Below, piece by piece: positions 2,031 to 41,314 of a stretch of 64,000 nt of DNA. The stretch covers positions 1 to 64,000 of the forward strand of contig NW_026060245.1 in the NCBI RefSeq assembly GCF_024166365.1. Direction: 5' to 3'. Origin of the DNA: Elephas maximus indicus. Lineage: Eukaryota; Chordata; Mammalia; Proboscidea; Elephantidae. Within the stretch, counting starts at the first letter, position 1, and each line of letters begins with the position of its first letter. A program made the position numbers and the translations under genes. Under the pieces are notes generated by a model. It was not told the DNA's origin and searched no databases. It saw only the letters and a program-made list of their open reading frames with translations.

Positions 2031-2236
2031 CTGTCAGAACAAAACAGAATTGCCAGTGATGCAAACTGCATGATCCCCTGGGGGAAAATATCTCTCAAAA
2101 ATTTCTAAGACAGAAACTAAACAAAAATGGGAGGTGCCTGGCCTGGGACCGTCTATGATGTCTTAGATGGGGGTGGGGTGGGGATGAGGGGCACACCCTT
2201 CCAGGGGGAATGCCATCTCCTCATCATTCTCATTAG

Positions 2237-2706
2237 CTCTCCACAGCGTCTTCATCACTGAGGGAAAGGGTAAAAGCTTTTCTGGGGATCTTGGCCAAGG
2301 CAGCTCAGAACCTACTGGTTGGGCGGGTAGTGTCATGAACTGATGGCCAAGCAGCTGTTGACAAATAAAAAAAATGATTATCACCAGAGAGTGAACCCAG
2401 ATGTAAACCGTGGACTTTACTTAATAACAAGGCATCAATAGTGGTCCACCAATTAGTGTAACAAAGATACCACAGGAATGCAAGATGGAAGCAGGGAAGA
2501 CTTTGTTCAGGTGGAGGGCAAGCACATGGGAATTCTCTGTGCTTCCTGTACAATTTTTGGGCAAACTGCTCTGAAAAATAAAGTCTATATCGGTATTGGT
2601 GATGGCTGCACATACTTACTGTTATTAAAAACTCATTGCCATCGAGTCGATTCTGACTCATAGTGACCCTATAGGACAGAGTAGAACTCCCGCATAGAGT
2701 TTCCAA
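2237..2706. repeat. Left-edge half monomer (chimeric)
   Basis: From 2237 to about 2430 it matches the A' duplicate (40035-40230). From about 2485 on it matches the core B-type monomers, for example 'GATGGAAGCAGGGAAGAC' where A' has 'GATGGTAGCAGGACAGAC'. The switch point marks an exchange between flank and array. Confidence 0.8.
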
Positions 2707-2771
2707 GCAGAGTTTGCAAACACTATTGGGCAGTTCTACTCTGTCCTATAGGGACGCTATGAGTCAGAATC
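2649..2771. repeat. Inverted SINE-tail pair (hairpin) recurring in each monomer
   Basis: Arm 2649-2688 (reverse SINE tail) and arm 2732-2771 (forward SINE tail) are complementary over 40 bp with 2 mismatches, around a 43-bp spacer. The same arrangement recurs at nearly every monomer junction of the array, for example near 3706-3828 and 4770-4893. Confidence 0.9.
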
Positions 2772-5700
2772 CACTCCACAACAACAGTTTTATTTATTTA
2801 TTTATCTATTTTTTAACCCCTTGTCCCTTCTCTAGTTTCTGGAATACTACAAAACGTGGTGTCTCCATGTAGTCAGCCTGGCCACCCCTCTCTGGAGAAA
2901 TCAAATATTATGTCCTTTCAGTGATGTCTGCACTGCTTAGAGCAATGCTTCCCACGTTTTAGTCAGGTGAGGAGTCCATAAAGTACACTCAGCCACAGAG
3001 ATTTCTCTGTCTCTGCCTGATCCCCTGGGAACTCCACCCAAGAAAGGCGGGAGGTGGGAGAAAGGGGTTTAAGAAAACGCTGTGCTTGTTGATAGGGTTA
3101 TTTGCACTATTATTTATTCCTAAGAACAACCTCTCCCTTTGGATAACATTTTCCAAGTATTTTCACACGTATTTATCTCTCGTGACCCTCTCAGCATCCT
3201 CGTGAGGTGAGGATCCAAACCCGTTGCCATCAAGTCAATTCTGACTCATAGTGACCCTATAGGACAGAGTAGAACTGTCCCAGAGCTCTCCACAGTGTGC
3301 TCATCACTGAGGTAAAGGGTAAGAGATTTTCTGGGGATCTTGGCCACACACTCAAAAGGGAGCTCAGAACCTACTGGTTGGGCGGGTGGTGTCGTGAACT
3401 AATGGCCTACTAGCTGTTGCCAAAAAAAAAATGATGATCGGTAGAGAGTGAACCCACATGTAAAGCATGGACTTTAGTTAATAACAAGGCATCAATAGTG
3501 GTCCACCAATTACTGTAACAAAGATACCACAGGAATGCAAGATGGTAGCAGGACAGACTTTGTTCAGGTGGAGGGCAAGCACATGGGAATTCTCTGTGCT
3601 TTCTGTACAATTTTTGGGCAAACTGCTCTGAAAAATAAAGTCCATATCGGTATTGGTGATGGCTGCGCATAATTACTGTTGTTAAAAACTCATTGCCATC
3701 GAGTCGATTCTGACTCATAGTGACCCTATAGGACAGAGTAGAACTCCCGCATAGAGTTTCCAAGCAGAGTTTGCAAACACTATTGGGCAGTTCTACTCTG
3801 TCCTATAGGGACGCTATGAGTCAGAATCCACTCCACAACAACAGTTTTATTTATTTATTTATTTATCGATTTTTTAACCCCTTGTCCCTTCTCTAGTGTC
3901 TAGAACACTAGAAACCGTGGTGTCTCTGTGTAGTCAGCTTGGCCACCCCCTCTCTGGAGAAATCAAATATTATGTCCTTTCAGTGATGTCTGCACTGCTT
4001 AGAGCAATGCTTCCCACGTTTTAGTCAGGTGAGGAGTCCATAAAGTACACTCAGCCACAGAGATTTCTCTGTCACTGCCTGATACCCTGGGAACTCCACC
4101 CAAGAAAGGAGGGAGGTGGGAGAAAGGGGTTTTAGAAAACCCTGTGCTTGTTGATAGGGTTATTTGCACTATTATTTATTCCTAAGAACAATCTCTCCTT
4201 TTGGATAACATTTTCCAAGTATTTTCACACGTATTTATCTCTCGTGACCCTCTCAGCAACCTCGTGAGGTGAGGATCCAAACCCATTGCCATCAAGTCAA
4301 TTCTGACTCATAGCGACCCTGTAGGACAGAGTAGAAGTGCCCCAGAGCTCTCCACAGTGTGCTCATCTCTGACGGAAAGGGTAAGAGCTTTTCTGGGGAT
4401 CTTGGCCACACACTCAAAAGGGAGCTCAGAACTTACTGGTTGGGCGGGTGGTGTCCTGAACTGTTGGCCAACCAGCTGTTGACAAATAAAAAAAATGATT
4501 ATCACCAGAGAGTGAACCCAGATGTAAACCGTGGACTTTACTTAATAACAAGGCATCAATAGTGGTCCACCAATTAGTGTAACAAAGATACCACAGGAAT
4601 GCAAGATGGAAGCAGGGAAGACTTTGTTCAGGTGGAGGGCAAGCACATGGGAATTCTCTGTGCTTCCTGTACAATTTTTGGGCAAACTGCTCTGAAAAAT
4701 AAAGTCTATATCGGTATTGGTGATGGCTGCACATACTTACTGTTATTAAAAACTCATTGCCATCGAGTCGATTCTGACTCATAGTGACCCTATAGGACAG
4801 AGTAGAACTCCCGCATAGAGTTTCCAAGCAGAGTTTGCAAACACTATTGGGCAGTTCTACTCTGTCCTAATAGGGACGCTATGAGTCAGAATCCACTCCA
4901 CAACAACAGTTTTATTTATTTATTTATTTATCGATTTTTTAACCCCTTGTCCCTTCTCTAGTGTCTAGAACACTAGAAACCGTGGTGTCTCTGTGTAGTC
5001 AGCCTGGCCACCCCTCTCTGGAGAAATCAAATATTATGTCCTTTCAGTGATGTCTGCACTGCTTAGAGCAATGCTTCCCACGTTTTAGTCAGGTGAGGAG
5101 TCCATAAAGTACACTCAGCCACAGAGATTTCTCTGTCTCTGCCTGATCCCCTGGGAACTCCACCCAAGAAAGGCGGGAGGTGGGAGAAAGGGGTTTAAGA
5201 AAACGCTGTGCTTGTTGATAGGGTTATTTGCACTATTATTTATTCCTAAGAACAACCTCTCCCTTTGGATAACATTTTCCAAGTATTTTCACACGTATTT
5301 ATCTCTCGTGACCCTCTCAGCATCCTCGTGAGGTGAGGATCCAAACCCGTTGCCATCAAGTCAATTCTGACTCATAGTGACCCTATAGGACAGAGTAGAA
5401 GTGCCCCAGAGCTCTCCACAGTGTGCTCATCACTGAGGGAAAGGGTAAGAGATTTTCTGGGGATCTTGGCCACACACTCAAAAGGGAGCTCAGAACCTAC
5501 TGGTTGGGCGGGTGGTGTCGTGAACTAATGGCCTACTAGCTGTTGCCAAAAAAAAAATGATGATCGGTAGAGAGTGAACCCAGATGTAAAGCATGGACTT
5601 TAGTTAATAACAAGGCATCAATAGTGGTCCACCAATTACTGTAACAAAGATACCACAGGAATGCAAGATGGTAGCAGGACAGACTTTGTTCAGGTGGAGG

Positions 5701-8700
5701 GCAAGCACATGGGAATTCTCTGTGCTTTCTGTACAATTTTTGGGCAAACTGCTCTGAAAAATAAAGTCCATATCGGTATTGGTGATGGCTGCGCATAATT
5801 ACTGTTGTTAAAAACTCATTGCCATCGAGTCGATTCTGACTCATAGTGACCCTATAGGACAGAGTAGAACTCCCGCATAGAGTTTCCAAGCAGAGTTTGC
5901 AAACACTATTGGGCAGTTCTACTCTGTCCTATAGGGACGCTATGAGTCAGAATCCACTCCACAACAACAGTTTTATTTATTTATTTATTTATCGATTTTT
6001 TAACCCCTTGTCCCTTCTCTAGTGTCTAGAACACTAGAAACCGTGGTGTCTCTGTGTAGTCAGCTTGGCCACCCCCTCTCTGGAGAAATCAAATATTATG
6101 TCCTTTCAGTGATGTCTGCACTGCTTAGAGCAATGCTTCCCACGTTTTAGTCAGGTGAGGAGTCCATAAAGTACACTCAGCCACAGAGATTTCTCTGTCA
6201 CTGCCTGATACCCTGGGAACTCCACCCAAGAAAGGAGGGAGGTGGGAGAAAGGGGTTTTAGAAAACCCTGTGCTTGTTGATAGGGTTATTTGCACTATTA
6301 TTTATTCCTAAGAACAATCTCTCCTTTTGGATAACATTTTCCAAGTATTTTCACACGTATTTATCTCTCGTGACCCTCTCAGCAACCTCGTGAGGTGAGG
6401 ATCCAAACCCATTGCCATCAAGTCAATTCTGACTCATAGCGACCCTATAGGACAGAGTAGAAGTGCCCCAGAGCTCTCCACAGTGTGCTCATCTCTGACG
6501 GAAAGGGTAAGAGCTTTTCTGGGGATCTTGGCCACACACTCAAAAGGGAGCTCAGAACTTACTGGTTGGGCGGGTGGTGTCCTGAACTGTTGGCCAACCA
6601 GCTGTTGACAAATAAAAAAAATGATTATCACCAGAGAGTGAACCCAGATGTAAACCGTGGACTTTACTTAATAACAAGGCATCAATAGTGGTCCACCAAT
6701 TAGTGTAACAAAGATACCACAGGAATGCAAGATGGAAGCAGGGAAGACTTTGTTCAGGTGGAGGGCAAGCACATGGGAATTCTCTGTGCTTCCTGTACAA
6801 TTTTTGGGCAAACTGCTCTGAAAAATAAAGTCTATATCGGTATTGGTGATGGCTGCACATACTTACTGTTATTAAAAACTCATTGCCATCGAGTCGATTC
6901 TGACTCATAGTGACCCTATAGGACAGAGTAGAACTCCCGCATAGAGTTTCCAAGCAGAGTTTGCAAACACTATTGGGCAGTTCTACTCTGTCCTATAGGG
7001 ACGCTATGAGTCAGAATCCACTCCACAACAACAGTTTTATTTATTTATTTATTTATCGATTTTTTTAACCCCTTGTCCCTTCTCTAGTGTCTAGAACACT
7101 AGAAACCGTGGTGTCTCTGTGTAGTCAGCTTGGCCACCCCCTCTCTGGAGAAATCAAATATTATGTCCTTTCAGTGATGTCTGCACTGCTTAGAGCAATG
7201 CTTCCCACGTTTTAGTCAGGTGAGGAGTCCATAAAGTACACTCAGCCACAGAGATTTCTCTGTCTCTGCCTGATACCCTGGGAACTCCAGCCAAGAAAGG
7301 AGGGAGGTGGGAGAAAGGGGTTTTAGAAAACGCTGTGCTTGTTCATAGGGTTATTTGCACTATTATTTATTCCTAAGAACAATCTCTCCCTTTGGATAAC
7401 ATTTTCCAAGAAGTTTCACACGTATTTATCTCTCGTGACCCTCTCAGCAACCTCGTGAGGTGAGGATCCAAACCCATTGCCATCAAGTCAATTCTGACTC
7501 ATAGCGACCCTATAGGACAGAGTAGAAGTGCCCCAGAGCTCTCCACAGTGTGCTCATCTCTGACGGAAAGGGTAAGAGCTTTTCTGGGGATCTTGGCCAC
7601 ACACTCAAAAGGGAGCTCAGAACTTACTGGTTGGGCGGGTGGTGTCCTGAACTGTTGGCCAACCAGCTGTTGACAAATAAAAAAAATGATTATCACCAGA
7701 GAGTGAACCCAGATGTAAACCGTGGACTTTACTTAATAACAAGGCATCAATAGTGGTCCACCAATTAGTGTAACAAAGATACCACAGGAATGCAAGATGG
7801 AAGCAGGGAAGACTTTGTTCAGGTGGAGGGCAAGCACACGGGAATTCTCTTTGCTTCCTGTACAATTTTTGGGCAAACTGCTCTGAAAAATAAAGTCTAT
7901 ATCGGTATTGGTGATGGCTGCACATACTTACTGTTATTAAAAACTCATTGCCATCGAGTCGATTCTGACTCATAGTGACCCTATAGGACAGAGTAGAACT
8001 CCCGCATAGAGTTTCCAAGCAGAGTTTGCAAACACTATTGGGCAGTTCTACTCTGTCCTATAGGGACGCTATGAGTCAGAATCCACTCCACAACAACAGT
8101 TTTATTTATTTATTTATTTATCGATTTTTTAACCCCTTGTCCCTTCTCTAGTGTCTAGAACACTAGAAACCGTGGTGTCTCTGTGTAGTCAGCTTGGCCA
8201 CCCCCTCTCTGGAGAAATCAAATATTATGTCCTTTCAGTGATGTCTGCACTGCTTAGAGCAATGCTTCCCACGTTTTAGTCAGGTGAGGAGTCCATAAAG
8301 TACACTCAGCCACAGAGATTTCTCTGTCTCTGCCTGATACCCTGGGAACTCCAGCCAAGAAAGGAGGGAGGTGGGAGAAAGGGGTTTTAGAAAACGCTGT
8401 GCTTGTTCATAGGGTTATTTGCACTATTATTTATTCCTAAGAACAATCTCTCCCTTTGGATAACATTTTCCAAGAAGTTTCACACGTATTTATCTCTCGT
8501 GACCCTCTCAGCAACCTCGTGAGGTGACGATCCAAACCCATTGCCACCTAGTCAATTGTGACTCATAGCGACACTATAAGACAGAGTAGAAGTGCTCCAG
8601 AGCTCTCCAGAGTGTCTTCATCACTGAGGGAAAGGGTAAGAGCTTTTCTGGGCATCTTGGCCACACACTCAAAAGGGAGCTCGGAACTTACTGGTTGGGC

Positions 8701-11195
8701 GGGAGGTGTCCTGAACTGTTGACCATCGAGCTGTTGACAAATAAAGAAAATGATTATCAGCAGAGAGTGAACCCAGATGTAAACCGTGGACTTCAGTTAA
8801 TAATAAGGCATCAAGAGTGGTCCACCAATTAGTGTAACAAAGATACCACAGGAATGCAAGATGGTAGCAGGACAGACTTTGTTCAGGTGGAGGGCAAGCA
8901 CATGGGAATTCTCTGGGCTTCCTGTACAATTTTTGGGCAAACTGCTCTGAAAAATAAAGTCTATATGGGTATTGGTGATGGCTGCACATAATTCCTGTTA
9001 TTAAAAACCCATTGCCATCGAGTCGATTCTGACTCATAGTGACCCTATAGGGCAGAGTAGAACTCCCGCATAGAGTTTCCAAGCAGAGTTTCCAAACACT
9101 ATTGGGTATTTCTACTCTGTCTTATAGGGTCGCTATGAGTCAGAATGAACTCCACAAGAACAGTTTTATTTATTTATTTATCTCTTTTTTAACCCCTTGT
9201 CCCTTGTCTAGTTTCTGGAATACTACAAAACGTGGTGTCTCCGTGTAGTCAGCCTGGCCACCCCTCTCTGGAGAAATCAAATATTATGTCCTTTCAGTGA
9301 TGTCTGCACTGTTTAGAGCAATGCTTCCCGCGTTTTAGTCAGGTGAGGAGTCCATAAAGTACACTCAGCCACAGAGATTTCTCCCTGATCCCCTGGGAAC
9401 TCCACCCAAGAAAGGCGGGAGGTGGGAGAAAGGGGTTTTAGAAAACCCTGTGCTTGTTGATAGGGTTATTTGCACTATTATTTATTCCTAAGAACAACCT
9501 CTCCCTTTGGATAACATTTTCCAAGTATTTTCACACGTATTTATCTCTCGTGACCCTCTCAGCATCCTCGTGAGGTGAGGATCCAAACCCGTTGCCATCA
9601 AGTCAATTCTGACTCATAGTGACCCTATAGGACAGAGTAGAAGTGCCCCAGAGCTCTCCACAGTGTGCTCATCACTGAGGGAAAGGGTAAGAGATTTTCT
9701 GGGGATCTTGGCCACACACTCAAAAGGGAGCTCAGAACCTACTGGTTGGGCGGGTGGTGTCGTGAACTAATGGCCTACTAGCTGTTGCCAAAAAAAAAAT
9801 GATGATCGGTAGAGAGTGAACCCAGATGTAAAGCATGGACTTTAGTTAATAACAAGGCATCAATAGTGGTCCACCAATTACTGTAACAAAGATACCACAG
9901 GAATGCAAGATGGTAGCAGGACAGACTTTGTTCAGGTGGAGGGCAAGCACATGGGAATTCTCTGTGCTTTCTGTACAATTTTTGGGCAAACTGCTCTGAA
10001 AAATAAAGTCCATATCGGTATTGGTGATGGCTGCGCATAATTACTGTTATTAAAAACTCATTGCCATCGAGTCGATTCTGACTCATAGTGACCCTATAGG
10101 ACAGAGTAGAACTCCCGCACAGAGTTTCCAAGCAGAGTTTGCAAACACTATTGGGCAGTTCTACTCTGTCCTATAGGGACGCTATGAGTCAGAATCCACT
10201 CCACAACAACAGTTTTATTTATTTATTTATTTATCGATTTTTTAACCCCTTGTCCCTTCTCTAGTGTCTAGAACACTAGAAACCGTGGTGTCTCTGTGTA
10301 GTCAGCTTGGCCACCCCCTCTCTGGAGAAATCAAATATTATGTCCTTTCAGTGATGTCTGCACTGCTTAGAGCAATGCTTCCCACGTTTTAGTCAGGTGA
10401 GGAGTCCATAAAGTACACTCAGCCACAGAGATTTCTCTGTCACTGCCTGATACCCTGGGAACTCCACCCAAGAAAGGAGGGAGGTGGGAGAAAGGGGTTT
10501 TAGAAAACCCTGTGCTTGTTGATAGGGTTATTTGCACTATTATTTATTCCTAAGAACAATCTCTCCTTTTGGATAACATTTTCCAAGTATTTTCACACGT
10601 ATTTATCTCTCGTGACCCTCTCAGCAACCTCGTGAGGTGAGGATCCAAACCCATTGCCATCAAGTCAATTCTGACTCATAGCGACCCTATAGGACAGAGT
10701 AGAAGTGCCCCAGAGCTCTCCACAGTGTGCTCATCTCTGACGGAAAGGGTAAGAGCTTTTCTGGGGATCTTGGCCACACACTCAAAAGGGAGCTCAGAAC
10801 TTACTGGTTGGGCGGGTGGTGTCCTGACCTGTTGGCCAACCAGCTGTTGACAAATAAAAAAAATGATTATCACCAGAGAGTGAACCCAGATGTAAACCGT
10901 GGACTTTACTTAATAACAAGGCATCAATAGTGGTCCACCAATTAGTGTAACAAAGATACCACAGGAATGCAAGATGGAAGCAGGGAAGACTTTGTTCAGG
11001 TGGAGGGCAAGCACATGGGAATTCTCTGTGCTTCCTGTACAATTTTTGGGCAAACTGCTCTGAAAAATAAAGTCTATATCGGTATTGGTGATGGCTGCAC
11101 ATACTTACTGTTATTAAAAACTCGTTGCCATCGAGTCGATTCTGACTCATAGTGACCCTATAGGACAGAGTAGAACTCCCGCATAGAGTTTCCAA
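2707..11195. repeat. Higher-order repeat copy 1 (8 monomers)
   Basis: Eight monomers in the order A, B, A, B, B*, C, A', B. Types are told apart by the length of the open minus-strand frame (117, 133, 117, 133, 133, 137, 117, 133 codons) and by point differences. Its first and third monomers differ from the other copies in their left halves, for instance TAAGAAAACGC and the GTAGTCAGCCTGG variant. Confidence 0.93.
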
Positions 11196-14100
11196 GCAGA
11201 GTTTGCAAACACTATTGGGCAGTTCTACTCTGTCCTATAGGGACGCTATGAGTCAGAATCCACTCCACAACAACAGTTTTATTTATTTATTTATTTATCG
11301 ATTTTTTAACCCCTTGTCCCTTCTCTAGTGTCTAGAACACTAGAAACCGTGGTGTCTCTGTGTAGTCAGCTTGGCCACCCCCTCTCTGGAGAAATCAAAT
11401 ATTATGTCCTTTCAGTGATGTCTGCACTGCTTAGAGCAATGCTTCCCAGGTTTTAGTCAGGTGAGGAGTCCATAAAGTACACTCAGCCACAGAGATTTCT
11501 CTGTCTCTGCCTGATACCCTGGGAACTCCAGCCAAGAAAGGAGGGAGGTGGGAGAAAGGGGTTTTAGAAAACGCTGTGCTTGTTCATAGGGTTATTTGCA
11601 CTATTATTTATTCCTAAGAACAACCTCTCCCTTTGGATAACATTTTCCAAGTATTTTCACACGTATTTATCTCTCGTGACCCTCTCAGCATCCTCGTGAG
11701 GTGAGGATCCAAACCCGTTGCCATCAAGTCAATTCTGACTCATAGTGACCCTATAGGACAGAGTAGAACTGCCCCAGAGCTCTCCACAGTGTGCTCATCA
11801 CTGAGGGAAAGGGTAAGAGATTTTCTGGGGATCTTGGCCACACACTCAAAAGGGAGCTCAGAACCTACTGGTTGGGCGGGTGGTGTCGTGAACTAATGGC
11901 CTACTAGCTGTTGCCAAAAAAAAAATGATGATCGGTAGAGAGTGAACCCACATGTAAAGCATGGACTTTAGTTAATAACAAGGCATCAATAGTGGTCCAC
12001 CAATTACTGTAACAAAGATACCACAGGAATGCAAGATGGTAGCAGGACAGACTTTGTTCAGGTGGAGGGCAAGCACATGGGAATTCTCTGTGCTTTCTGT
12101 ACAATTTTTGGGCAAACTGCTCTGAAAAATAAAGTCCATATCGGTATTGGTGATGGCTGCGCATAATTACTGTTGTTAAAAACTCATTGCCATCGAGTCG
12201 ATTCTGACTCATAGTGACCCTATAGGACAGAGTAGAACTCCCGCATAGAGTTTCCAAGCAGAGTTTGCAAACACTATTGGGCAGTTCTACTCTGTCCTAT
12301 AGGGACGCTATGAGTCAGAATCCACTCCACAACAACAGTTTTATTTATTTATTTATTTATCGATTTTTTAACCCCTTGTCCCTTCTCTAGTGTCTAGAAC
12401 ACTAGAAACCGTGGTGTCTCTGTGTAGTCAGCTTGGCCACCCCCTCTCTGGAGAAATCAAATATTATGTCCTTTCAGTGATGTCTGCACTGCTTAGAGCA
12501 ATGCTTCCCACGTTTTAGTCAGGTGAGGAGTCCATAAAGTACACTCAGCCACAGAGATTTCTCTGTCACTGCCTGATACCCTGGGAACTCCACCCAAGAA
12601 AGGAGGGAGGTGGGAGAAAGGGGTTTTAGAAAACCCTGTGCTTGTTGATAGGGTTATTTGCACTATTATTTATTCCTAAGAACAATCTCTCCTTTTGGAT
12701 AACATTTTCCAAGTATTTTCACACGTATTTATCTCTCGTGACCCTCTCAGCAACCTCGTGAGGTGAGGATCCAAACCCATTGCCATCAAGTCAATTCTGA
12801 CTCATAGCGACCCTATAGGACAGAGTAGAAGTGCCCCAGAGCTCTCCACAGTGTGCTCATCTCTGACGGAAAGGGTAAGAGCTTTTCTGGGGATCTTGGC
12901 CACACACTCAAAAGGGAGCTCAGAACTTACTGGTTGGGCGGGTGGTGTCCTGAACTGTTGGCCAACCAGCTGTTGACAAATAAAAAAAATGATTATCACC
13001 AGAGAGTGAACCCAGATGTAAACCGTGGACTTTACTTAATAACAAGGCATCAATAGTGGTCCACCAATTAGTGTAACAAAGATACCACAGGAATGCAAGA
13101 TGGAAGCAGGGAAGACTTTGTTCAGGTGGAGGGCAAGCACATGGGAATTCTCTGTGCTTCCTGTACAATTTTTGGGCAAACTGCTCTGAAAAATAAAGTC
13201 TATATCGGTATTGGTGATGGCTGCACATACTTACTGTTATTAAAAACTCATTGCCATCGAGTCGATTCTGACTCATAGTGACCCTATAGGACAGAGTAGA
13301 ACTCCCGCATAGAGTTTCCAAGCAGAGTTTGCAAACACTATTGGGCAGTTCTACTCTGTCCTATAGGGACGCTATGAGTCAGAATCCACTCCACAACAAC
13401 AGTTTTATTTATTTATTTATTTATCGATTTTTTTAACCCCTTGTCCCTTCTCTAGTGTCTAGAACACTAGAAACCGTGGTGTCTCTGTGTAGTCAGTTTG
13501 GCCACCCCCTCTCTGGAGAAATCAAATATTATGTCCTTTCAGTGATGTCTGCACTGCTTAGAGCAATGCTTCCCAGGTTTTAGTCAGGTGAGGAGTCCAT
13601 AAAGTACACTCAGCCACAGAGATTTCTCTGTCTCTGCCTGATACCCTGGGAACTCCAGCCAAGAAAGGAGGGAGGTGGGAGAAAGGGGTTTTAGAAAACG
13701 CTGTGCTTGTTCATAGGGTTATTTGCACTATTATTTATTCCTAAGAACAACCTCTCCCTTTGGATAACATTTTCCAAGTATTTTCACACGTATTTATCTC
13801 TCGTGACCCTCTCAGCATCCTCGTGAGGTGAGGATCCAAACCCGTTGCCATCAAGTCAATTCTGACTCATAGTGACCCTATAGGACAGAGTAGAACTGCC
13901 CCAGAGCTCTCCACAGTGTGCTCATCACTGAGGGAAAGGGTAAGAGATTTTCTGGGGATCTTGGCCACACACTCAAAAGGGAGCTCAGAACCTACTGGTT
14001 GGGCGGGTGGTGTCGTGAACTAATGGCCTACTAGCTGTTGCCAAAAAAAAAATGATGATCGGTAGAGAGTGAACCCAGATGTAAAGCATGGACTTTAGTT

Positions 14101-25600: not shown

Positions 25601-28189
25601 CCAGAGTGTCTTCATCACTGAGGGAAAGGGTAAGAGCTTTTCTGGGCATCTTGGCCACACACTCAAAATGGAGCTCGGAACTTACTGGTTGGGCGGGAGG
25701 TGTCCTGAACTGTTGACCATCGAGCTGTTGACAAATAAAGAAAATGATTATCAGCAGAGAGTGAACCCAGATGTAAACCGTGGACTTCAGTTAATAATAA
25801 GGCATCAAGAGTGGTCCACCAATTAGTGTAACAAAGATACCACAGGAATGCAAGATGGTAGCAGGACAGACTTTGTTCAGGTGGAGGGCAAGCACATGGG
25901 AATTCTCTGGGCTTCCTGTACAATTTTTGGGCAAACTGCTCTGAAAAATAAAGTCTATATGGGTATTGGTGATGGCTGCACATAATTCCTGTTATTAAAA
26001 ACCCATTGCCATCGAGTCGATTCTGACTCATAGTGACCCTATAGGGCAGAGTAGAACTCCCGCATAGAGTTTCCAAGCAGAGTTTCCAAACACTATTGGG
26101 TATTTCTACTCTGTCTTATAGGGTCGCTATGAGTCAGAATGAACTCCACAAGAACAGTTTTATTTATTTATTTATCTCTTTTTTAACCCCTTGTCCCTTG
26201 TCTAGTTTCTGGAATACTACAAAACGTGGTGTCTCCGTGTAGTCAGCCTGGCCACCCCTCTCTGGAGAAATCAAATATTATGTCCTTTCAGTGATGTCTG
26301 CACTGTTTAGAGCAATGCTTCCCGCGTTTTAGTCAGGTGAGGAGTCCATAAAGTACACTCAGCCACAGAGATTTCTCCCTGATCCCCTGGGAACTCCACC
26401 CAAGAAAGGCGGGAGGTGGGAGAAAGGGGTTTTAGAAAACCCTGTGCTTGTTGATAGGGTTATTTGCACTATTATTTATTCCTAAGAACAACCTCTCCCT
26501 TTGGATAACATTTTCCAAGTATTTTCACACGTATTTATCTCTCGTGACCCTCTCAGCATCCTCGTGAGGTGAGGATCCAAACCCGTTGCCATCAAGTCAA
26601 TTCTGACTCATAGTGACCCTATAGGACAGAGTAGAAGTGCCCCAGAGCTCTCCACAGTGTGCTCATCACTGAGGGAAAGGGTAAGAGATTTTCTGGGGAT
26701 CTTGGCCACACACTCAAAAGGGAGCTCAGAACCTACTGGTTGGGCGGGTGGTGTCGTGAACTAATGGCCTACTAGCTGTTGCCAAAAAAAAAATGATGAT
26801 CGGTAGAGAGTGAACCCAGATGTAAAGCATGGACTTTAGTTAATAACAAGGCATCAATAGTGGTCCACCAATTACTGTAACAAAGATACCACAGGAATGC
26901 AAGATGGTAGCAGGACAGACTTTGTTCAGGTGGAGGGCAAGCACATGGGAATTCTCTGTGCTTTCTGTACAATTTTTGGGCAAACTGCTCTGAAAAATAA
27001 AGTCCATATCGGTATTGGTGATGGCTGCGCATAATTACTGTTATTAAAAACTCATTGCCATCGAGTCGATTCTGACTCATAGTGACCCTATAGGACAGAG
27101 TAGAACTCCCGCACAGAGTTTCCAAGCAGAGTTTGCAAACACTATTGGGCAGTTCTACTCTGTCCTATAGGGACGCTATGAGTCAGAATCCACTCCACAA
27201 CAACAGTTTTATTTATTTATTTATTTATCGATTTTTTAACCCCTTGTCCCTTCTCTAGTGTCTAGAACACTAGAAACCGTGGTGTCTCTGTGTAGTCAGC
27301 TTGGCCACCCCCTCTCTGGAGAAATCAAATATTATGTCCTTTCAGTGATGTCTGCACTGCTTAGAGCAATGCTTCCCACGTTTTAGTCAGGTGAGGAGTC
27401 CATAAAGTACACTCAGCCACAGAGATTTCTCTGTCACTGCCTGATACCCTGGGAACTCCACCCAAGAAAGGAGGGAGGTGGGAGAAAGGGGTTTTAGAAA
27501 ACCCTGTGCTTGTTGATAGGGTTATTTGCACTATTATTTATTCCTAAGAACAATCTCTCCTTTTGGATAACATTTTCCAAGTATTTTCACACGTATTTAT
27601 CTCTCGTGACCCTCTCAGCAACCTCGTGAGGTGAGGATCCAAACCCATTGCCATCAAGTCAATTCTGACTCATAGCGACCCTATAGGACAGAGTAGAAGT
27701 GCCCCAGAGCTCTCCACAGTGTGCTCATCTCTGACGGAAAGGGTAAGAGCTTTTCTGGGGATCTTGGCCACACACTCAAAAGGGAGCTCAGAACTTACTG
27801 GTTGGGCGGGTGGTGTCCTGAACTGTTGGCCAACCAGCTGTTGACAAATAAAAAAAATGATTATCACCAGAGAGTGAACCCAGATGTAAACCGTGGACTT
27901 TACTTAATAACAAGGCATCAATAGTGGTCCACCAATTAGTGTAACAAAGATACCACAGGAATGCAAGATGGAAGCAGGGAAGACTTTGTTCAGGTGGAGG
28001 GCAAGCACATGGGAATTCTCTGTGCTTCCTGTACAATTTTTGGGCAAACTGCTCTGAAAAATAAAGTCTATATCGGTATTGGTGATGGCTGCACATACTT
28101 ACTGTTATTAAAAACTCATTGCCATCGAGTCGATTCTGACTCATAGTGACCCTATAGGACAGAGTAGAACTCCCGCATAGAGTTTCCAA
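19691..28189. repeat. Higher-order repeat copy 3 (8 monomers)
   Basis: Same order as copy 2 and almost identical to it. It is 4 bp longer because of one extra TTTA in the microsatellite near 25095. A single change (AAAATGGAGC for AAAAGGGAGC) lies near 25669. Confidence 0.95.
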
Positions 28190-31100
28190 GCAGAGTTTGC
28201 AAACACTATTGGGCAGTTCTACTCTGTCCTATAGGGACGCTATGAGTCAGAATCCACTCCACAACAACAGTTTTATTTATTTATTTATTTATCGATTTTT
28301 TAACCCCTTGTCCCTTCTCTAGTGTCTAGAACACTAGAAACCGTGGTGTCTCTGTGTAGTCAGCTTGGCCACCCCCTCTCTGGAGAAATCAAATATTATG
28401 TCCTTTCAGTGATGTCTGCACTGCTTAGAGCAATGCTTCCCAGGTTTTAGTCAGGTGAGGAGTCCATAAAGTACACTCAGCCACAGAGATTTCTCTGTCT
28501 CTGCCTGATACCCTGGGAACTCCAGCCAAGAAAGGAGGGAGGTGGGAGAAAGGGGTTTTAGAAAACGCTGTGCTTGTTCATAGGGTTATTTGCACTATTA
28601 TTTATTCCTAAGAACAATCTCTCCCTTTGGATAACATTTTCCAAGAAGTTTCACACGTATTTATCTCTCGTGACCCTCTCAGCAACCTCGTGAGGTGACG
28701 ATCCAAACCCATTGCCACCTAGTCAATTGTGACTCATAGCGACACTATAAGACAGAGTAGAAGTGCTCCAGAGCTCTCCAGAGTGTCTTCATCACTGAGG
28801 GAAAGGGTAAGAGCTTTTCTGGGCATCTTGGCCACACACTCAAAAGGGAGCTCGGAACTTACTGGTTGGGCGGGAGGTGTCCTGAACTGTTGACCATCGA
28901 GCTGTTGACAAATAAAGAAAATGATTATCAGCAGAGAGTGAACCCAGATGTAAACCGTGGACTTCAGTTAATAATAAGGCATCAAGAGTGGTCCACCAAT
29001 TAGTGTAACAAAGATACCACAGGAATGCAAGATGGTAGCAGGACAGACTTTGTTCAGGTGGAGGGCAAGCACATGGGAATTCTCTGGGCTTCCTGTACAA
29101 TTTTTGGGCAAACTGCTCTGAAAAATAAAGTCTATATGGGTATTGGTGATGGCTGCACATAATTCCTGTTATTAAAAACCCATTGCCATCGAGTCGATTC
29201 TGACTCATAGTGACCCTATAGGGCAGAGTAGAACTCCCGCATAGAGTTTCCAAGCAGAGTTTCCAAACACTATTGGGTATTTCTACTCTGTCTTATAGGG
29301 TCGCTATGAGTCAGAATGAACTCCACAAGAACAGTTTTATTTATTTATTTATCTCTTTTTTAACCCCTTGTCCCTTGTCTAGTTTCTGGAATACTACAAA
29401 ACGTGGTGTCTCCGTGTAGTCAGCCTGGCCACCCCTCTCTGGAGAAATCAAATATTATGTCCTTTCAGTGATGTCTGCACTGTTTAGAGCAATGCTTCCC
29501 GCGTTTTAGTCAGGTGAGGAGTCCATAAAGTACACTCAGCCACAGAGATTTCTCCCTGATCCCCTGAGAACTCCACCCAAGAAAGGCGGGAGGTGGGAGA
29601 AAGGGGTTTTAGAAAACCCTGTGCTTGTTGATAGGGTTATTTGCACTATTATTTATTCCTAAGAACAACCTCTCCCTTTGGATAACATTTTCCAAGTATT
29701 TTCACACGTATTTATCTCTCGTGACCCTCTCAGCATCCTCGTGAGGTGAGGATCCAAACCCGTTGCCATCAAGTCAATTCTGACTCATAGTGACCCTATA
29801 GGACAGAGTAGAAGTGCCCCAGAGCTCTCCACAGTGTGCTCATCACTGAGGGAAAGGGTAAGAGATTTTCTGGGGATCTTGGCCACACACTCAAAAGGGA
29901 GCTCAGAACCTACTGGTTGGGCGGGTGGTGTCGTGAACTAATGGCCTACTAGCTGTTGCCAAAAAAAAAATGATGATCGGTAGAGAGTGAACCCAGATGT
30001 AAAGCATGGACTTTAGTTAATAACAAGGCATCAATAGTGGTCCACCAATTACTGTAACAAAGATACCACAGGAATGCAAGATGGTAGCAGGACAGACTTT
30101 GTTCAGGTGGAGGGCAAGCACATGGGAATTCTCTGTGCTTTCTGTACAATTTTTGGGCAAACTGCTCTGAAAAATAAAGTCCATATCGGTATTGGTGATG
30201 GCTGCGCATAATTACTGTTATTAAAAACTCATTGCCATCGAGTCGATTCTGACTCATAGTGACCCTATAGGACAGAGTAGAACTCCCGCATAGAGTTTCC
30301 AAGCAGAGTTTGCAAACACTATTGGGCAGTTCTACTCTGTCCTATAGGGACGCTATGAGTCAGAATCCACTCCACAACAACAGTTTTATTTATTTATTTA
30401 TTTATCGATTTTTTAACCCCTTGTCCCTTCTCTAGTGTCTAGAACACTAGAAACCGTGGTGTCTCTGTGTAGTCAGCTTGGCCACCCCCTCTCTGGAGAA
30501 ATCAAATATTATGTCCTTTCAGTGATGTCTGCACTGCTTAGAGCAATGCTTCCCACGTTTTAGTCAGGTGAGGAGTCCATAAAGTACACTCAGCCACAGA
30601 GATTTCTCTGTCTCTGCCTGATACCCTGGGAACTCCAGCCAAGAAAGGAGGGAGGTGGGAGAAAGGGGTTTTAGAAAACCCTGTGCTTGTTGATAGGGTT
30701 ATTTGCACTATTATTTATTCCTAAGAACAATCTCTCCTTTTGGATAACATTTTCCAAGTATTTTCACACGTATTTATCTCTCGTGACCCTCTCAGCAACC
30801 TCGTGAGGTGAGGATCCAAACCCATTGCCATCAAGTCAATTCTGACTCATAGCGACCCTATAGGACAGAGTAGAAGTGCCCCAGAGCTCTCCACAGTGTG
30901 CTCATCTCTGACGGAAAGGGTAAGAGCTTTTCTGGGGATCTTGGCCACACACTCAAAAGGGAGCTCAGAACTTACTGGTTGGGCGGGTGGTGTCCTGACC
31001 TGTTGGCCAACCAGCTGTTGACAAATAAAAAAAATGATTATCACCAGAGAGTGAACCCAGATGTAAACCGTGGACTTTACTTAATAACAAGGCATCAATA

Positions 31101-31366
31101 GTGGTCCACCAATTAGTGTAACAAAGATACCACAGGAATGCAAGATGGAAGCAGGGAAGACTTTGTTCAGGTGGAGGGCAAGCACATGGGAATTCTCTGT
31201 GCTTCCTGTACAATTTTTGGGCAAACTGCTCTGAAAAATAAAGTCTATATCGGTATTGGTGATGGCTGCACATACTTACTGTTATTAAAAACTCATTGCC
31301 ATCGAGTCGATTCTGACTCATAGTGACCCTATAGGACAGAGTAGAACTCCCGCATAGAGTTTCCAA
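28190..31366. repeat. Partial higher-order repeat (C, A', B)
   Basis: Three monomers repeat positions 6-8 of the higher-order unit. The last carries CTGACCTGTTGG, a variant otherwise seen only in the final monomer of copy 1 (near 10827), so this block relates to copy 1 rather than to its neighbour. Confidence 0.9.
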
Positions 31367-32899
31367 GCAGAGTTTGCAAACACTATTGGGCAGTTCTACT
31401 CTGTCCTATAGGGACGCTATGAGTCAGAATCCACTCCACAACAACAGTTTTATTTATTTATTTATTTATCGATTTTTTAACCCCTTGTCCCTTCTCTAGT
31501 GTCTAGAACACTAGAAACCGTGGTGTCTCTGTGTAGTCAGCTTGGCCACCCCCTCTCTGGAGAAATCAAATATTATGTCCTTTCAGTGATGTCTGCACTG
31601 CTTAGAGCAATGCTTCCCAGGTTTTAGTCAGGTGAGGAGTCCATAAAGTACACTCAGCCACAGAGATTTCTCTGTCTCTGCCTGATACCCTGGGAACTCC
31701 AGCCAAGAAAGGAGGGAGGTGGGAGAAAGGGGTTTTAGAAAACGCTGTGCTTGTTCATAGGGTTATTTGCACTATTATTTATTCCTAAGAACAATCTCTC
31801 CCTTTGGATAACATTTTCCAAGAAGTTTCACACGTATTTATCTCTCGTGACCCTCTCAGCAACCTCGTGAGGTGACGATCCAAACCCATTGCCACCTAGT
31901 CAATTGTGACTCATAGCGACACTATAAGACAGAGTAGAAGTGCTCCAGAGCTCTCCAGAGTGTCTTCATCACTGAGGGAAAGGGTAAGAGCTTTTCTGGG
32001 CATCTTGGCCACACACTCAAAAGGGAGCTCGGAACTTACTGGTTGGGCGGGAGGTGTCCTGAACTGTTGACCATCGAGCTGTTGACAAATAAAGAAAATG
32101 ATTATCAGCAGAGAGTGAACCCAGATGTAAACCGTGGACTTCAGTTAATAATAAGGCATCAAGAGTGGTCCACCAATTAGTGTAACAAAGATACCACAGG
32201 AATGCAAGATGGTAGCAGGACAGACTTTGTTCAGGTGGAGGGCAAGCACATGGGAATTCTCTGTGCTTCCTGTACAATTTTTGGGCAAACTGCTCTGAAA
32301 AATAAAGTCTATATGGGTATTGGTGATGGCTGCACATAATTCCTGTTATTAAAAACCCATTGCCATCGAGTCGATTCTGACTCATAGTGAACCTATAGGA
32401 CAGAGTAGAACTGCCCCAGAGCTCTCCACAGTGTGCTCATCACTGAGGGAAAGGGTAAGAGCTTTTCTAGGGATCTTGGCCACAGACTCAAAAGGGAACT
32501 CAGAACTGACTGGTTGGGCGGGTGGTGTCGTGAACTGATGGCCTACTAGCTGTTGCCAAAAAAAAAATGATGATCGGTAGAGAGTGAACCCAGATGTAAA
32601 GCATGGACTTTAGTTAATAACAAGGAATCAATAGTGGTCCACCAATTACTGTAACAAAGATACCACAGGAATGCAAGATGGTAGCAGGACAGACTTTGTT
32701 CAGGTGGAGGGCAAGCACATGGGAATTCTCTGTGCTTTCTGTACAATTTTTGGGCAAACTGCTCCGAAAAATAAAGTCTATATCGGTATTGGTGATGGCT
32801 GCACATAATTACTGTTATTAAAAACCCATTGCCATCGAGTCGATTCTGACTCATAGTGACCCTATAGGACAGAGTAGAATTCCCGCATAGAGTTTACGA
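31367..32899. repeat. Fused monomer with internal deletion
   Basis: A C-type monomer passes, inside its SINE tail at about 32385-32412, straight into the second half of an A-type monomer. The expected first half is missing, so the spacing to the next unit is 469 bp. The break lies in the shared 'GGACAGAGTAGAACT' of two SINE tails. Confidence 0.88.
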
Positions 32900-35800
32900 G
32901 CAGAGTTTCCAAACAGTATTTGGCAGTTCTACTCTATCCTAAAGGGTTGCTATAAGTCAGAATCAACTCCACAACAACAGTTTTATTTATTTATTTATTT
33001 ATTTATTTTTTAACCCCTTGTCCCTTCTCTAGTGTCTAGAACACTAGAAAGTGTGGTGTCGCCGTGTAGTCAGCCTGGCCACCCCTCTCTGGAGAAATCA
33101 AATATTATGTCCTTTCAGTGATGTCTGCACTGCTTAGAGCAATGCTTCCCACGTTTCAGTCAGGTGAGGAGTCCATAAAGTACACTCAGCCACAGAGATT
33201 TCTCTGTCTCTGCCTGATCCCCTGGGAACTCCACCCAAGAAAGGCGGGAGGTGGGAGAAAGGGGTTTAAGAAAACGCTGTGCTTGTTGATAGGGTTATTT
33301 GCACTACTATTTATTCCTAAGAACAATCTCTCCTTTTGGATAACATTTTCCAAGAAGTTTCACACGTATTTATCTCTCGTGACCCTCTCAGCATCCTCGT
33401 GAGGTGAGGATGCAAACCCGTTGCCATCAAGTCAATTCTGACTCATAGCGACCCTATAGGACAGAGTAGAAGCGCCCCAGAGCTCTCCGCAGTGTCTTCA
33501 TCACTGAGGGAAAGGGTAAGAGCTTTTCTGGGGATCTTGGCCACACACTCAAAAGGGAGCTCAGAACTTACTGGTTGGGTGGGTGGTGTCTTGAACTGTT
33601 GGCCTACGAGCTGTTGACAAATTAAAAAAATGATTATCACCAGAGAGTGAACCCAGATGTAAACCGTGGATTTCAGTTAATAATAAGGCATCAATAATGG
33701 TCCACCAATTAAAGTAAAAAGGATACCACAGGAATGCAAGATGGTAGCAGGACAGACTTTGTTCAGGTGGAGGGCAAGCACATGGGAATTCTCTGTGCTT
33801 CCTGTACAATTTTTGGACAAACTGCTCTGAAAAATAAAGTCTATATGGGTATTGGGGATGGCTGCACATAATTACTGTTATTAAAAACCCATTGCCATCG
33901 AGTCGATTCTGACTCATAGTGACCCTATAGGACAGAGTAGAACTCTCGCATAGAGTTTCCAAGCAGAGTTTGCAAACACTATTGGGCAGTTCTACTCTGT
34001 CCTATAGGGACGCTATGAGTCAGAATCCAGTCCACAGCAACAGTTTTATTTATTTATTTATTTATCGATTTTTTTAACCCCTTGTCCCTTCTCTAGTGTC
34101 TAGAACACTAGAAACCGTGGTGTCTCTGTGTAGTCAGCTTGGCCACCCCCTCTCTGGAGAAATCAAATATTATGTCCTTTCAGTAATGTCTGCACTGCTT
34201 AGAGCAATGCTTCCCAGGTTTTAGTCAGGTGAGGAGTCCATAAAGTACACTCAGCCACAGAGATTTCTCTGTCTCTGCCTGATACCCTGAGAACTCCACC
34301 CAAGAAAGGAGGGAGGTGGGAGAAAGGGGTTTTAGAAAACGCTGTGCTTGTTCATAGGGTTATTTGCACTATTATTTATTCCTAAGAACAATCTCTCCCT
34401 TTGGATAACATTTTTCAAGAAGTTTCACACGTATTTATCTCTCGTGACCCTCTCAGCAACCTCGTGAGGTGACGATCCAAACCCATTGCCACCTAGTCAA
34501 TTCTGACTCATAGCGACCCTATAAGACAGAGCAGAAGTGCCCCAGAGCTCTCCAGAGTGTCTTCATCACGGAGGAAAAGGGTAAGAGCTTTTCTGAGCAT
34601 TTTGGCCACACACTCAAAAGGGAGCTCGGAACTTACTGGTTGGGCGGGAGGTGTCCTGAACTGTTGACCATCGAGCTGTTGACAAATAAAGAAAATGATT
34701 ATCACCAGAGAGTGAACCCAGATGTAAACCGGGGACTTCAGTTAATAATAAGGCATCAAGAGTGGTCCACCAATTAGTGTAACAAAGATACCACAGGAAT
34801 GCAAGATGGTAGCAGGACAGACTTTGTTCAGGTGGAGGGCAAGCACATGCGAATTCTCTGTGCTTCCTGTACAATTTTTGGTCAAACTGCTCTGAAAAAT
34901 AAAGTCTATATGGGTATTGGTGATGGCTGCACATAATTCCTGTTATTAAAAACCCATTGCCATCGAGTCGATTCTGACTCATAGTGACCCTATAGGACAG
35001 AGTAGAACTCCCGCATAGAGTTTACAAGCAGTTTGCAAACACTATTGGCAGCTCTACTCTGTCCTATAGGGACGCTATGAGTCAGAATCAACTCCACAAC
35101 AACACTTTTATTTATTTATTTATCTCTTTTTTAAACCCTTGTCCCTTCTCTAGCGTCTACAATACTAGAAAACGTGCTGTCTCTGTGTAGTCAACCTGGC
35201 CACCCCCTCTCTGGAGAAATCAAATATTATGTCCTTTCAGTGATGTCTGCACTGCTTAGAGCAATGCTTCCCACGTTTTAGTTAGGTGAGGAGTCCATAA
35301 AGTACACTCAGCCACAGAGATTTCTCTGTCTCTGCCTGGTCCCCTGGGAACTCCACCCAAGAAAGGAGGGAGGTGGGAGAAAGGGGTTTAAGAATACGCT
35401 GTGCTTGTTGATAGGGTCATTTGCACTATTGTTTACTCCTAAGAGCAATCTCTCCCTTTGGATAACATTTTCCAAGTATTTTCACACATATTTATCTCTC
35501 GTGACACTCTCAGCAACCTTGTGAGGTGAGGATGCAAACCCGTTGCCATCAAGTCAATTCTGACTCATAGCGACCCTATAGGACAGAGTAGAAGTGCCCC
35601 AGAGCTCTCCACAGTGTCTTCTTCACTGAGGGAAAGGGTAAGAGATTTTCTGGGGATCTTGGCCACACACTCAAAAGGGAGCTCAGAACTTACTGGTTGG
35701 GCGGGAGGTGTCCTGAACTGTTGGCCAAGGAGCTGTTGACAAATAAAAAAAATGATTATCACCAGAGAGTGAACCCTTATGTAAACCGTGGACTTCAGTT

Positions 35801-35912
35801 AATAATAAGGTATCAATAGTGGTCCACCAATTACTGTAAAACAGATACCACAGGAATGCAAGATGGCAGCAGGGAAGACTTTGTTCAGGTGGAGGGCAAG
35901 CACATGGGAATT
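32900..35912. repeat. Divergent right-edge monomers
   Basis: Two full monomers and one truncated one. They carry many private changes (for example TTTACGAGC, GACAAATTAAAA) that are not shared with the core. The last unit ends at about 35912. Diverged edges around a homogenised core are typical of arrays shaped by unequal exchange. Confidence 0.9.
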
Positions 35913-36975
35913 CCCTCAGACAGCTTTGAAGGGTTAAAAACAATTCTTCCTTGTGTTGAGATGCAATTTCTACTCCCAGGTCCTCATTGTGCCCTCTAGG
36001 AATCAGGGGGGAAACTACCACAAATCAAATGATCATCTCACTGAGTTCTCCAGATAGGGAAAGTGAGCCTCTGAGAGGCTACAGAGTAAGCTTCTAAGGC
36101 ACTATCAGGATTTGATCCAAAGCTGTGTGATTGAAGCTCCCTGTTCTTCCCACGACCCTGACCTACTTCTGGACAGTCACACATGCCATTCCCTTTCCAT
36201 ACTACAGGAAAGCATCCCCATCCTCTCTCTACTTTCTCTCCTTTCTCCCTTCTTCCCTTTGTATCTCTCCCTTCTCTCCTTCTCTCTTTTCTCCCACTCC
36301 ACTTACCTCTCTTCTTCTTCCCTTATCTCTTTCTGTCTCCTACCTCCTCCCTATCTGCCTCTCCCCTCCTCTTTCTCCCTTTCTCTCTCCCTATCTCTTG
36401 AGCCCTCTTCCCTATGGAGTAAGTATTCTCCACTCCTTGCAGCCAGTGTCCCTGGTGATGGAGCTGGCCACAGGGGAACAAAGGTTGCTGGTGGCTGTGA
36501 CTAGCCCAGAGTAAAACAGAGCTGCTGTCATCCTGTTTGTTTCTGTGAAAGGCAGCCTACGGTGAGGAGTAATATCACTAGTCATACAAAGACCTGATAT
36601 TCCTGAGAAACGCTCAGCCAGTCTTCCCATCTGCTTCTCCTCCAAGGCCTGACTTCGGGCAGAATCCTGTGAGTGCCAGACACTTGCAAAATATTTTTTT
36701 CTGTTGCTGAAAGCGCCATCTCACACCTTCTACTTAGTCTTTGCTGACCATGGTGAGGCCAGTACACCAGCCATCAGCCTGTTCTGGATCCTGACCTGTT
36801 TCTGGGCAGCCAGGTTCCACAGTCCACTGCGCTTGGCCCCTTTCAGCACCAAATCACTCTGGGTGACCTACAAGGCTCCTCTAGCTTCTTACTTTACAAC
36901 ACTCAACAGTTGAGACAGCAGAGGCTCTCAGCAACCTGCCTGGTGCTGCCTGAGCTCCCACACAGGGCCACTTAC
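35913..36975 (-). other. Intron between CUB exon and array edge
   Basis: Apart from the polypyrimidine tract, this 1-kb stretch shows no exon with splice signals and no SRCR or CUB similarity. Monomer similarity stops sharply at about 35912, after GGGAATTC. A copy of this stretch is expected left of the window. Confidence 0.55.
36218..36414. repeat. Polypyrimidine tract
   Basis: About 195 bp almost wholly C and T on the plus strand, so purine-rich on the transcribed sense strand. It is a simple-sequence tract capable in principle of triplex formation. The long Ser/Leu/Pro frames here are products of this composition. Confidence 0.85.
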
Positions 36976-41311: not shown

Positions 41312-41314
41312 TAC

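What the first reader, a model, noticed from the sequence alone, without database searches (positions are those of the whole stretch)
2237..35912. A higher-order satellite array inside a DMBT1-family intron
About 32 monomers of about 1,064 bp form an 8-monomer higher-order repeat of about 8,495 bp. It is present three times (2707-11195, 11196-19690, 19691-28189) plus a 3-monomer partial copy. Copies 2 and 3 differ at only a few bases by eye. This architecture, with a homogenised core and diverged edges, is known from centromeric alpha satellite; finding it in an intron of a host-defence gene is unusual. I know of no description of it.
Basis: seen in the sequence. Interest (0 to 1): 0.88.

Follow-up and report, generated by a model that had tools for sequence, protein, structure and literature searches.

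The report
Exon-derived repeat array in DMBT1-like intron
A mammal gene related to the mucosal defence gene DMBT1 holds, inside what looks like one intron, about 32 copies of a kilobase-long repeat arranged in a repeating block of eight; the repeat appears to be the surroundings of one of the gene's own exons with the exon cut out, so it looks like a failed exon duplication that kept multiplying.

Summary
The array is real and the coordinates accurate: 31 units (one enlarged, one truncated) plus a 470-bp half-unit. An 8-monomer block of 8,489-8,499 bp occurs three times (copies 2 and 3: 5 substitutions and one 4-bp gap in 8,495), then a 3-monomer partial copy and four irregular units. It fills 96% of a predicted 34.9-kb phase-1 intron between two CUB exons of a DMBT1-like gene on the minus strand.

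(2) The CUB exon-1 region with a short array is duplicated at 38-41 kb (0.83% divergence). (3) All 32 boundaries tested carry head-to-head SINE halves able to form a hairpin.

Best explanation: a non-coding megasatellite born from an abortive exon duplication, homogenised by unequal exchange and gene conversion. No tested feature is centromere-specific. Allele copy number, species and abundance elsewhere in the genome could not be tested.

The parts
2237..35916 (.). Whole tandem array: half-monomer 2237-2706, then m01-m31; 33,680 bp
2707..11195 (.). HOR copy 1 (m01-m08, A B A B B' C D B)
11196..19690 (.). HOR copy 2 (m09-m16)
19691..28189 (.). HOR copy 3 (m17-m24); 5 mismatches and one 4-bp gap to copy 2
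28190..31366 (.). Partial HOR copy (m25-m27 = C D B)
31367..35916 (.). Irregular right edge: m28 (1,533 bp, C-like with an internal 469-bp duplication), m29, m30, m31 (truncated)
6891..7023 (.). Example of the boundary hairpin: head-to-head SINE halves, 63-nt arms 87% complementary, 7-nt spacer; equivalents at 32 of 32 boundaries tested
   Evidence: (this boundary folded)
1880..2030 (-). CUB exon 1 of the second CUB copy (downstream end of the array intron)
36976..37184 (-). CUB exon 2 of the first CUB copy (upstream end of the array intron)
39678..39828 (-). CUB exon 1 of the first CUB copy; the compared 145 bases (1888-2032 / 39686-39830, which hold 143 of the 151 exon bases) are identical
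2031..36975 (-). The predicted 34,945-bp phase-1 intron that holds the array
832..1473 (.). Diverged left half of the ancestral unit (monomer positions about 8-575; 85.7-88.3% identical to m01-m31 over 832-1380) on the other side of CUB exon 1
1474..2236 (.). The 763-bp stretch (5' half of SINE B plus all of CUB exon 1) that monomers lack
37872..41314 (.). Second copy of window 1-3513: flank, CUB exon 1 and about 1.3 kb of array; 0.83% diverged outside and 4.7% inside the array
40035..41314 (.). Short array upstream of the first CUB copy (half-monomer plus most of one monomer)
44076..44390 (-). SRCR exon (matched part; exact exon ends not determined)
56754..57068 (-). SRCR exon (matched part; exact exon ends not determined)
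60287..60601 (-). SRCR exon (matched part; exact exon ends not determined)

Best explanation
The array is a non-coding, locally born megasatellite with higher-order structure in an intron of a DMBT1-like gene. A segment of roughly 1.8 kb around CUB exon 1 was tandemly duplicated, with the junction fusing two oppositely oriented SINEs. The extra copy lost 762-763 bp, including the whole exon, giving an exon-less 1,064-bp unit. That unit multiplied by unequal exchange and gene conversion. Later the CUB module with a piece of array was tandemly duplicated, and the array between the two CUB copies grew into the 8-monomer HOR by block duplication. It most likely has no product of its own. Its likely consequence is structural: a long stretch of homology on which unequal recombination can change array length and CUB-module number. 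SHOWN by sequence: collinearity and the missing exon segment, duplication of the exon-1 region with a short array, mosaic monomers, HOR copies, inverted SINE halves at the boundaries. INFERRED: the direction (deletion, from the SINE ends) and order of the first steps, that exon 2 was duplicated too (it would lie outside the window), recombination as the amplifying process, neutrality, length polymorphism.
For: Monomer B aligns to the exon-bearing locus on both sides of one large gap (the aligner also scattered 21 bases in three short islands inside it). By its junction letters the missing stretch is 1474-2236 (763 bp) in copy 1 and 39273-40034 (762 bp) in copy 2, and it contains exon 1. The exon-bearing locus has a full-length SINE flanked by similar 11-bp repeats (10 of 11 alike in copy 1, 9 of 11 in copy 2); monomers keep only one flank and the SINE's 3' half, so the monomer is most simply the derived state. 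The exon-bearing unit is in register with, and contiguous to, the first monomer. Window 1-2236 vs 37872-40034: 18 of 2,160 aligned bases differ (0.83%); inside the array 60 of 1,277 (4.7%). Monomers m09 and m11 are clean chimeras, C-like at the first 38 of 88 informative sites and D-like at all but the last of the rest; 0 of 20,000 shuffles give as long a run for m09. m28 carries a 469-bp duplication between its same-orientation SINE pieces. The open frame in monomers shows pN/pS 0.27-2.46 over 15 class pairs, 13 of 15 between 0.75 and 1.79; the class-B frame has no Pfam match at E 0.001.
Against: No reads, no second individual and no second species could be examined, so array length and even the module duplication rest on one assembly. 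The genome-wide search did not complete, so monomer copies elsewhere are not excluded. The left half of the ancestral unit is 12-14% from m01-m31 while the right half is 2.5-8% from them; this is explained by homogenisation of the side that touches the array, but that is an inference. The target-site repeats were read by eye and are imperfect, and one of them recurs at 1321 through a 72-bp duplication. CUB exon 2 of the second copy should lie just left of the window and was not seen. Neutrality is a default, not a result.
Confidence: 0.75

Rival explanations
1. A satellite family resident elsewhere in the genome (centromeric or dispersed) that landed in this intron.
For: Kilobase-scale monomers with HOR look like a centromeric satellite; the elephant centromere monomer is said to be about 936 bp (PMC4053949, passages). 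The genome could not be searched.
Against: The unit is collinear with this gene's own exon-1 flanks and looks like a deletion derivative of them; monomer length is 1,064 rather than 936 bp; no exact CENP-B box in the window and no match to two manatee-satellite primers within 2 mismatches.
Confidence: 0.07
2. Assembly artefact: copy number inflated by the assembler, and the 37.9-41.3 kb copy a false (haplotype) duplication.
For: HOR copies 2 and 3 are 99.94% identical; the flank copies are 99.2% identical; no reads are available here.
Against: Each full HOR copy and the partial copy carry differences of their own; the right edge and the second copy have their own structures (469-bp duplication, SINE piece at 41315-41381, 4.7% array divergence). 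The array intron and both CUB copies are frame-compatible. The window has no N.
Confidence: 0.1
3. Palindrome-driven amplifier: the head-to-head SINE hairpin at each boundary breaks or stalls replication and actively drives amplification (an addition to the best explanation rather than an exclusive rival).
For: 32 of 32 boundaries have arms of 53-78 nt, 80-87% paired, with spacers of 5-15 nt; the one boundary folded gives z -14.3 (DNA) and -15.8 (RNA), 0 of 200 shuffles as good in each. A review reports replication stalling at inverted Alu repeats with a 12-bp spacer (PMC7999016, passages).
Against: Other exchange points (m09/m11 near alignment column 393; the SINE-bounded duplication in m28) are not at the hairpin; the hairpin may just be the frozen first junction. 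Fold energies are for isolated strands.
Confidence: 0.3
4. The array encodes something: exonised open frames or a selected RNA.
For: A stop-free frame of 130-150 codons on the gene's sense strand recurs through the array (31 of its 33 listed copies in the array; the other two have 113 and 115); a very stable RNA hairpin at the boundary folded.
Against: pN/pS is 0.75-1.79 in 13 of 15 class pairs (the lowest, 0.27 for A-D, rests on two changes), the class-B frame has no Pfam match, frame ends differ among classes, no Rfam match at gathering threshold in the window.
Confidence: 0.04

Closest known systems
Megasatellite / large tandem arrays with TE-bearing kilobase units, including a human 6-monomer HOR of ~3.5-kb LTR units (PMC2588610; passages and section 7 seen)
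   Same: kilobase units that contain transposable-element pieces, higher-order repeats, not centromeric alpha satellite; some arrays lie wholly in introns
   Different: here the unit is traced to the host gene's own exon neighbourhood with the exon removed, and every boundary tested is a SINE inverted repeat; the passages seen describe neither
Human DMBT1 SRCR repeat (42 kb, 2.9-kb units, 13 copies in PMC2588610; alleles with 7-21 SRCR domains in PMC9038570, passages)
   Same: tandem expansion inside the same gene family, with known copy-number variation
   Different: SRCR units carry exons; this array amplified exon-less CUB-flank DNA
NBPF 3-mer HORs and hornerin repeats (search listing only; both named in section 7 of PMC2588610)
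   Same: repeats of 1.4-1.6-kb units at genes rather than centromeres, NBPF with HORs
   Different: those units lie in or carry exons; these show no sign of coding
Manatee TMAsat (~684-687 bp) and the reported 936-bp elephant centromeric monomer (PMC8421680, PMC4053949; passages)
   Same: large-monomer satellites of afrotherian mammals; TMAsat has HOR structure, and its paper reports short TMAsat-like arrays in elephants and hyraxes
   Different: different unit length, no match to two TMAsat primers, genic position; the full satellite sequences were not compared

Membership tests
Higher-order repeat array | Multimer copies far more alike than the monomers within them | tested here: met
   HOR copies 99.6-99.9% alike; monomer classes 92.9-98.0% alike, except B vs B' 99.0-99.3%
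Higher-order repeat array | Monomer classes recur in fixed order | tested here: met
   A B A B B' C D B in three copies plus C D B
Megasatellite with TE pieces | Kilobase-scale unit holding transposable-element fragments, no gene | tested here: met
   three SINE fragments per unit; the only CUB or SRCR exon match inside the array has E 9.3; SINE family name recalled
Megasatellite with TE pieces | Length polymorphism among alleles | not testable with these tools
   one assembly only
Centromeric satellite (alpha-like) | Centromeric location, megabase arrays, CENP-A chromatin | not testable with these tools
   no chromosome context; here the array is 33.7 kb inside a gene
Centromeric satellite (alpha-like) | CENP-B box (common, not universal) | tested here: not met
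   0 exact matches to the motif in the window, both strands; 56 matches with 2 mismatches allowed, no chance level computed
TMAsat | ~684-687-bp unit | tested here: not met
   unit 1,064 bp
TMAsat | Sequence match to the satellite | tested here: inconclusive
   two published primers only, 0 matches within 2 mismatches
DMBT1-type gene | SRCR and CUB domains | tested here: met
   Pfam SRCR 127.6 and 123.7 bits, CUB 104.2 bits; best single-domain PDB matches of the SRCR are DMBT1; for the CUB the best PDB match is cubilin and no DMBT1 chain is listed
DMBT1-type gene | ZP domain after the CUB domains (recalled) | not tested
   would lie left of the window

The most novel reading that the evidence does not exclude
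Abortive exon duplication as a birth route for satellite DNA: a domain-shuffling gene tried to duplicate a CUB exon, the copy lost the exon, and the exon-less remnant, sealed at each boundary by a SINE palindrome that promotes breakage, became a self-amplifying higher-order satellite that now separates two copies of the CUB module and makes CUB number itself unstable, as SRCR number is in human DMBT1.
Probability: 0.3. Interest if true: 0.72.

Novelty: new variant of a known kind. Interest (0 to 1): 0.55.

Why it matters
Where satellites come from is usually lost to time. Here the likely ancestor (exon-bearing unit with an intact SINE), the deletion that made the monomer, a short sister array, older diverged units and freshly copied 8-monomer blocks all sit within about 41 kb, so the steps of satellite birth can be read and ordered. 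It also gives a testable prediction that a host-defence gene varies in CUB-module number.

Tried and rejected
Centromere-like satellite: set aside on unit length, lack of an exact CENP-B box and apparent local origin. Coding or exonised array: set aside on substitution pattern and lack of a family match. Structured RNA family: no Rfam match at gathering threshold. Insertion of the exon into a pre-existing monomer (reverse direction): disfavoured because the exon-bearing SINE is whole with target-site-like repeats and the monomer's is cut. A 48-base monomer pattern against viral contigs, tried on the chance of stray host DNA, gave 0 matches; this says nothing on abundance in the host. Tandem Repeats Finder could not see the 1-kb period. 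Literature: (all ten searches used) listed no paper that, by title and start of abstract, describes this array; passages were seen of five papers, one of them with one section. DMBT1 with 'elephant' gave 4 papers, none of which by title and start of abstract deals with the gene in elephants. Most subscription papers are not held.
Full report
OBSERVATION. A 14-mer offset count (14-mers with more than 60 copies left out) peaks at 8,495, and 1,064 and its multiples are prominent. A monomer from 19691-20754 matched against the window gives a contiguous series of units from 2235 to 35916. They parse as m01 (2707) to m31 (35028-35916), 1,049-1,068 bp long except m28 (1,533) and m31 (889, cut short). 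The order A B A B B' C D B is repeated three times, then C D B, then four irregular units. Within-class identity is 98.2-100%; between classes it is 92.9-98.0%, except B vs B' 99.0-99.3%. Copy 2 vs copy 3: 5 mismatches and one 4-bp gap in 8,495; copy 1 vs copy 2: 30 mismatches and five short gaps, 26 of the mismatches in m01 and m03; the partial copy is 6 of 3,177 from each full copy, plus a 4-bp gap against copy 3. 'Diverged edges' is right only for the right side.

SETTING. Three SRCR exons lie on the minus strand (matched parts 60287-60601, 56754-57068, 44076-44390). The SRCR at 60.3 kb scores 127.6 bits to Pfam SRCR, and its best single-domain PDB matches are DMBT1 chains; multi-domain chains of M130 (CD163), PIT54 and CD5-antigen-like score higher in sum over several domains. 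A CUB domain is split over exon 1 (39678-39828) and exon 2 (36976-37184), with a second exon 1 at 1880-2030. All three have AG acceptors and GTAAGT donors. Joined as exon 1, exon 2, next exon 1 they read open in one frame, so the array intron (2031-36975, 34,945 bp, phase 1) is frame-compatible and the array fills 33,680 bp of it. The CUB protein matches Pfam CUB at 104.2 bits; its best PDB match is cubilin, and no DMBT1 CUB chain is listed. Splicing is predicted, not observed.

MODULE DUPLICATION. Window 1-3513 recurs at 37872-41314. Outside the array 18 of 2,160 aligned bases differ (0.83%); inside, 60 of 1,277 (4.7%). The match reaches the left end of the window, so the duplication probably continues to the left, where a second CUB exon 2 is predicted. 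The second copy has only about 1.3 kb of array (40035-41314), interrupted by a SINE piece at 41315-41381 with AATTAC on both sides (read by eye).

ORIGIN OF THE MONOMER. The two sides of CUB exon 1 are themselves monomer halves: 832-1380 matches monomer positions 8-562 (85.7-88.3% to m01-m31), and 2235-2706 matches 583-1064 (92.2-97.5%, best to class B). Monomer B aligns to the exon-bearing locus with one large gap, inside which the aligner scattered 21 bases in three short islands, and one 10-bp gap besides smaller ones. The junction lies between CCCCAGAG and CTCTCC: 763 bp (1474-2236) are missing relative to copy 1 and 762 bp (39273-40034) relative to copy 2, and the whole of exon 1 lies inside. 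The exon-bearing locus has a full SINE (about 1404-1561) flanked by GAGGTGAGGAT (1393) and GAGGTAAGGAT (1563), 10 of 11 alike; in copy 2 the pair is 9 of 11 alike; the monomer has the left flank and only the SINE's 3' half. A whole element with both target-site repeats is most simply older than a half element with one, so the monomer is most likely the deletion product. The exon-bearing unit is in register with the array, as its first member. The SINE resembles AfroSINE from memory; no call names it.

THE BOUNDARY. At each boundary tested a SINE half on one strand abuts a SINE half on the other. All 32 (31 in the array, one at 40505) show arms of 53-78 nt, 80-87% complementary, spacers 5-15 nt. 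The one boundary folded gives -53.3 kcal/mol as DNA (z -14.3) and -105 as RNA (z -15.8), 0 of 200 shuffles as good in each. The exon-bearing flank has a complete-looking SINE at about 757-909 in place of the fused half, so the fusion is most likely the junction of the first tandem duplication. Review passages report that inverted Alus with a 12-bp spacer stall replication (PMC7999016). Whether the hairpin drives amplification here is inference.

HOMOGENISATION. Class A units of copies 2 and 3 are chimeras: of 88 sites where C and D differ, m09 and m11 are C-like at the first 38 and D-like at all but the last of the rest; m03 is C-like at the first 21 and then mixed; m01 is mixed. In the run test, made for m03 and m09 only, 0 of 20,000 shuffles reached the observed run for either. 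Columns 171-400 of m01 and m03 are 1 of 229 from m29, which lies near the opposite end of the array. m28 contains a 469-bp duplication bounded by its same-orientation SINE pieces. These are marks of gene conversion or unequal exchange.

RELATIVE ORDER (inferred from divergence, which conversion can lower): left ancestral half vs monomers 12-14%; monomer classes 2-7% (B vs B' under 1%); CUB module copies 0.83%; HOR1 vs HOR2 0.35%; HOR2 vs HOR3 0.06%. On this reading the HOR is younger than the module duplication, and the main monomer classes older.

FUNCTION. The sense-strand frame of 130-150 codons (31 of 33 listed copies in the array) shows pN/pS 0.27-2.46 over 15 class pairs, 13 of 15 between 0.75 and 1.79; the class-B frame has no Pfam match at E 0.001; no Rfam match at gathering threshold. 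The simplest reading is a non-coding by-product. Its foreseeable effect is recombinational: the short array at 40.0-41.3 kb is about 92-94% like the large array and in direct orientation, and the flanks are 99% alike, so unequal exchange could remove or add the CUB module. This is a prediction.

WHAT IS KNOWN. Human DMBT1 has a 42-kb array of 2.9-kb SRCR units; large arrays inside introns and an LTR-based 6-monomer HOR are described in the same paper (PMC2588610, passages and section 7). DMBT1 alleles with 7-21 SRCR domains are described in PMC9038570 (passages). NBPF HORs are known (listing). The satellites reported for elephant (936 bp) and manatee (684-687 bp) differ in length, and two manatee primers find no match; their full sequences were not compared. 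None of the ten literature searches listed a paper that by title and start of abstract describes this array. It is a new variant of a known kind, with an unusually readable origin.

LIMITS. One assembly; no reads; species, genome-wide abundance and the left flank untested because the genome search did not complete in seven tries.

Noticed in passing
54514-54608: A broken SRCR-like relic on the minus strand (two short pieces, 80-82% identical, E 8e-6), possibly a decayed SRCR exon duplicate.
   Followed up: no
43125-45328 and 55800-58023: A 2.2-kb segment holding an SRCR exon is duplicated at 75% identity; 53833-54512 and 58126-58826 match at 80%. Probably older exon-unit duplications of the same gene.
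   Followed up: no
46759-52063: Open frames that look like pieces of a LINE-1-type element; the one piece tested, 47970-48425, passes the Pfam endonuclease cut-off (27.1 vs 24.5 bits). The LINE-1 name is recalled.
   Followed up: no
1310-1454: A 72-bp tandem duplication in copy 1, at the edge of the full SINE next to CUB exon 1; the copy at 39.2 kb has a 72-column gap there.
   Followed up: partly
41315-41381: A SINE fragment in the short array with AATTAC on both sides; it has the SINE's 5' half rather than the usual 3' part.
   Followed up: partly
32900-33962 and 2707-5889: Columns 171-400 of left-edge units m01 and m03 are nearly identical to right-edge unit m29 (1 of 229), suggesting long-range exchange or a shared old tract.
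   Followed up: partly
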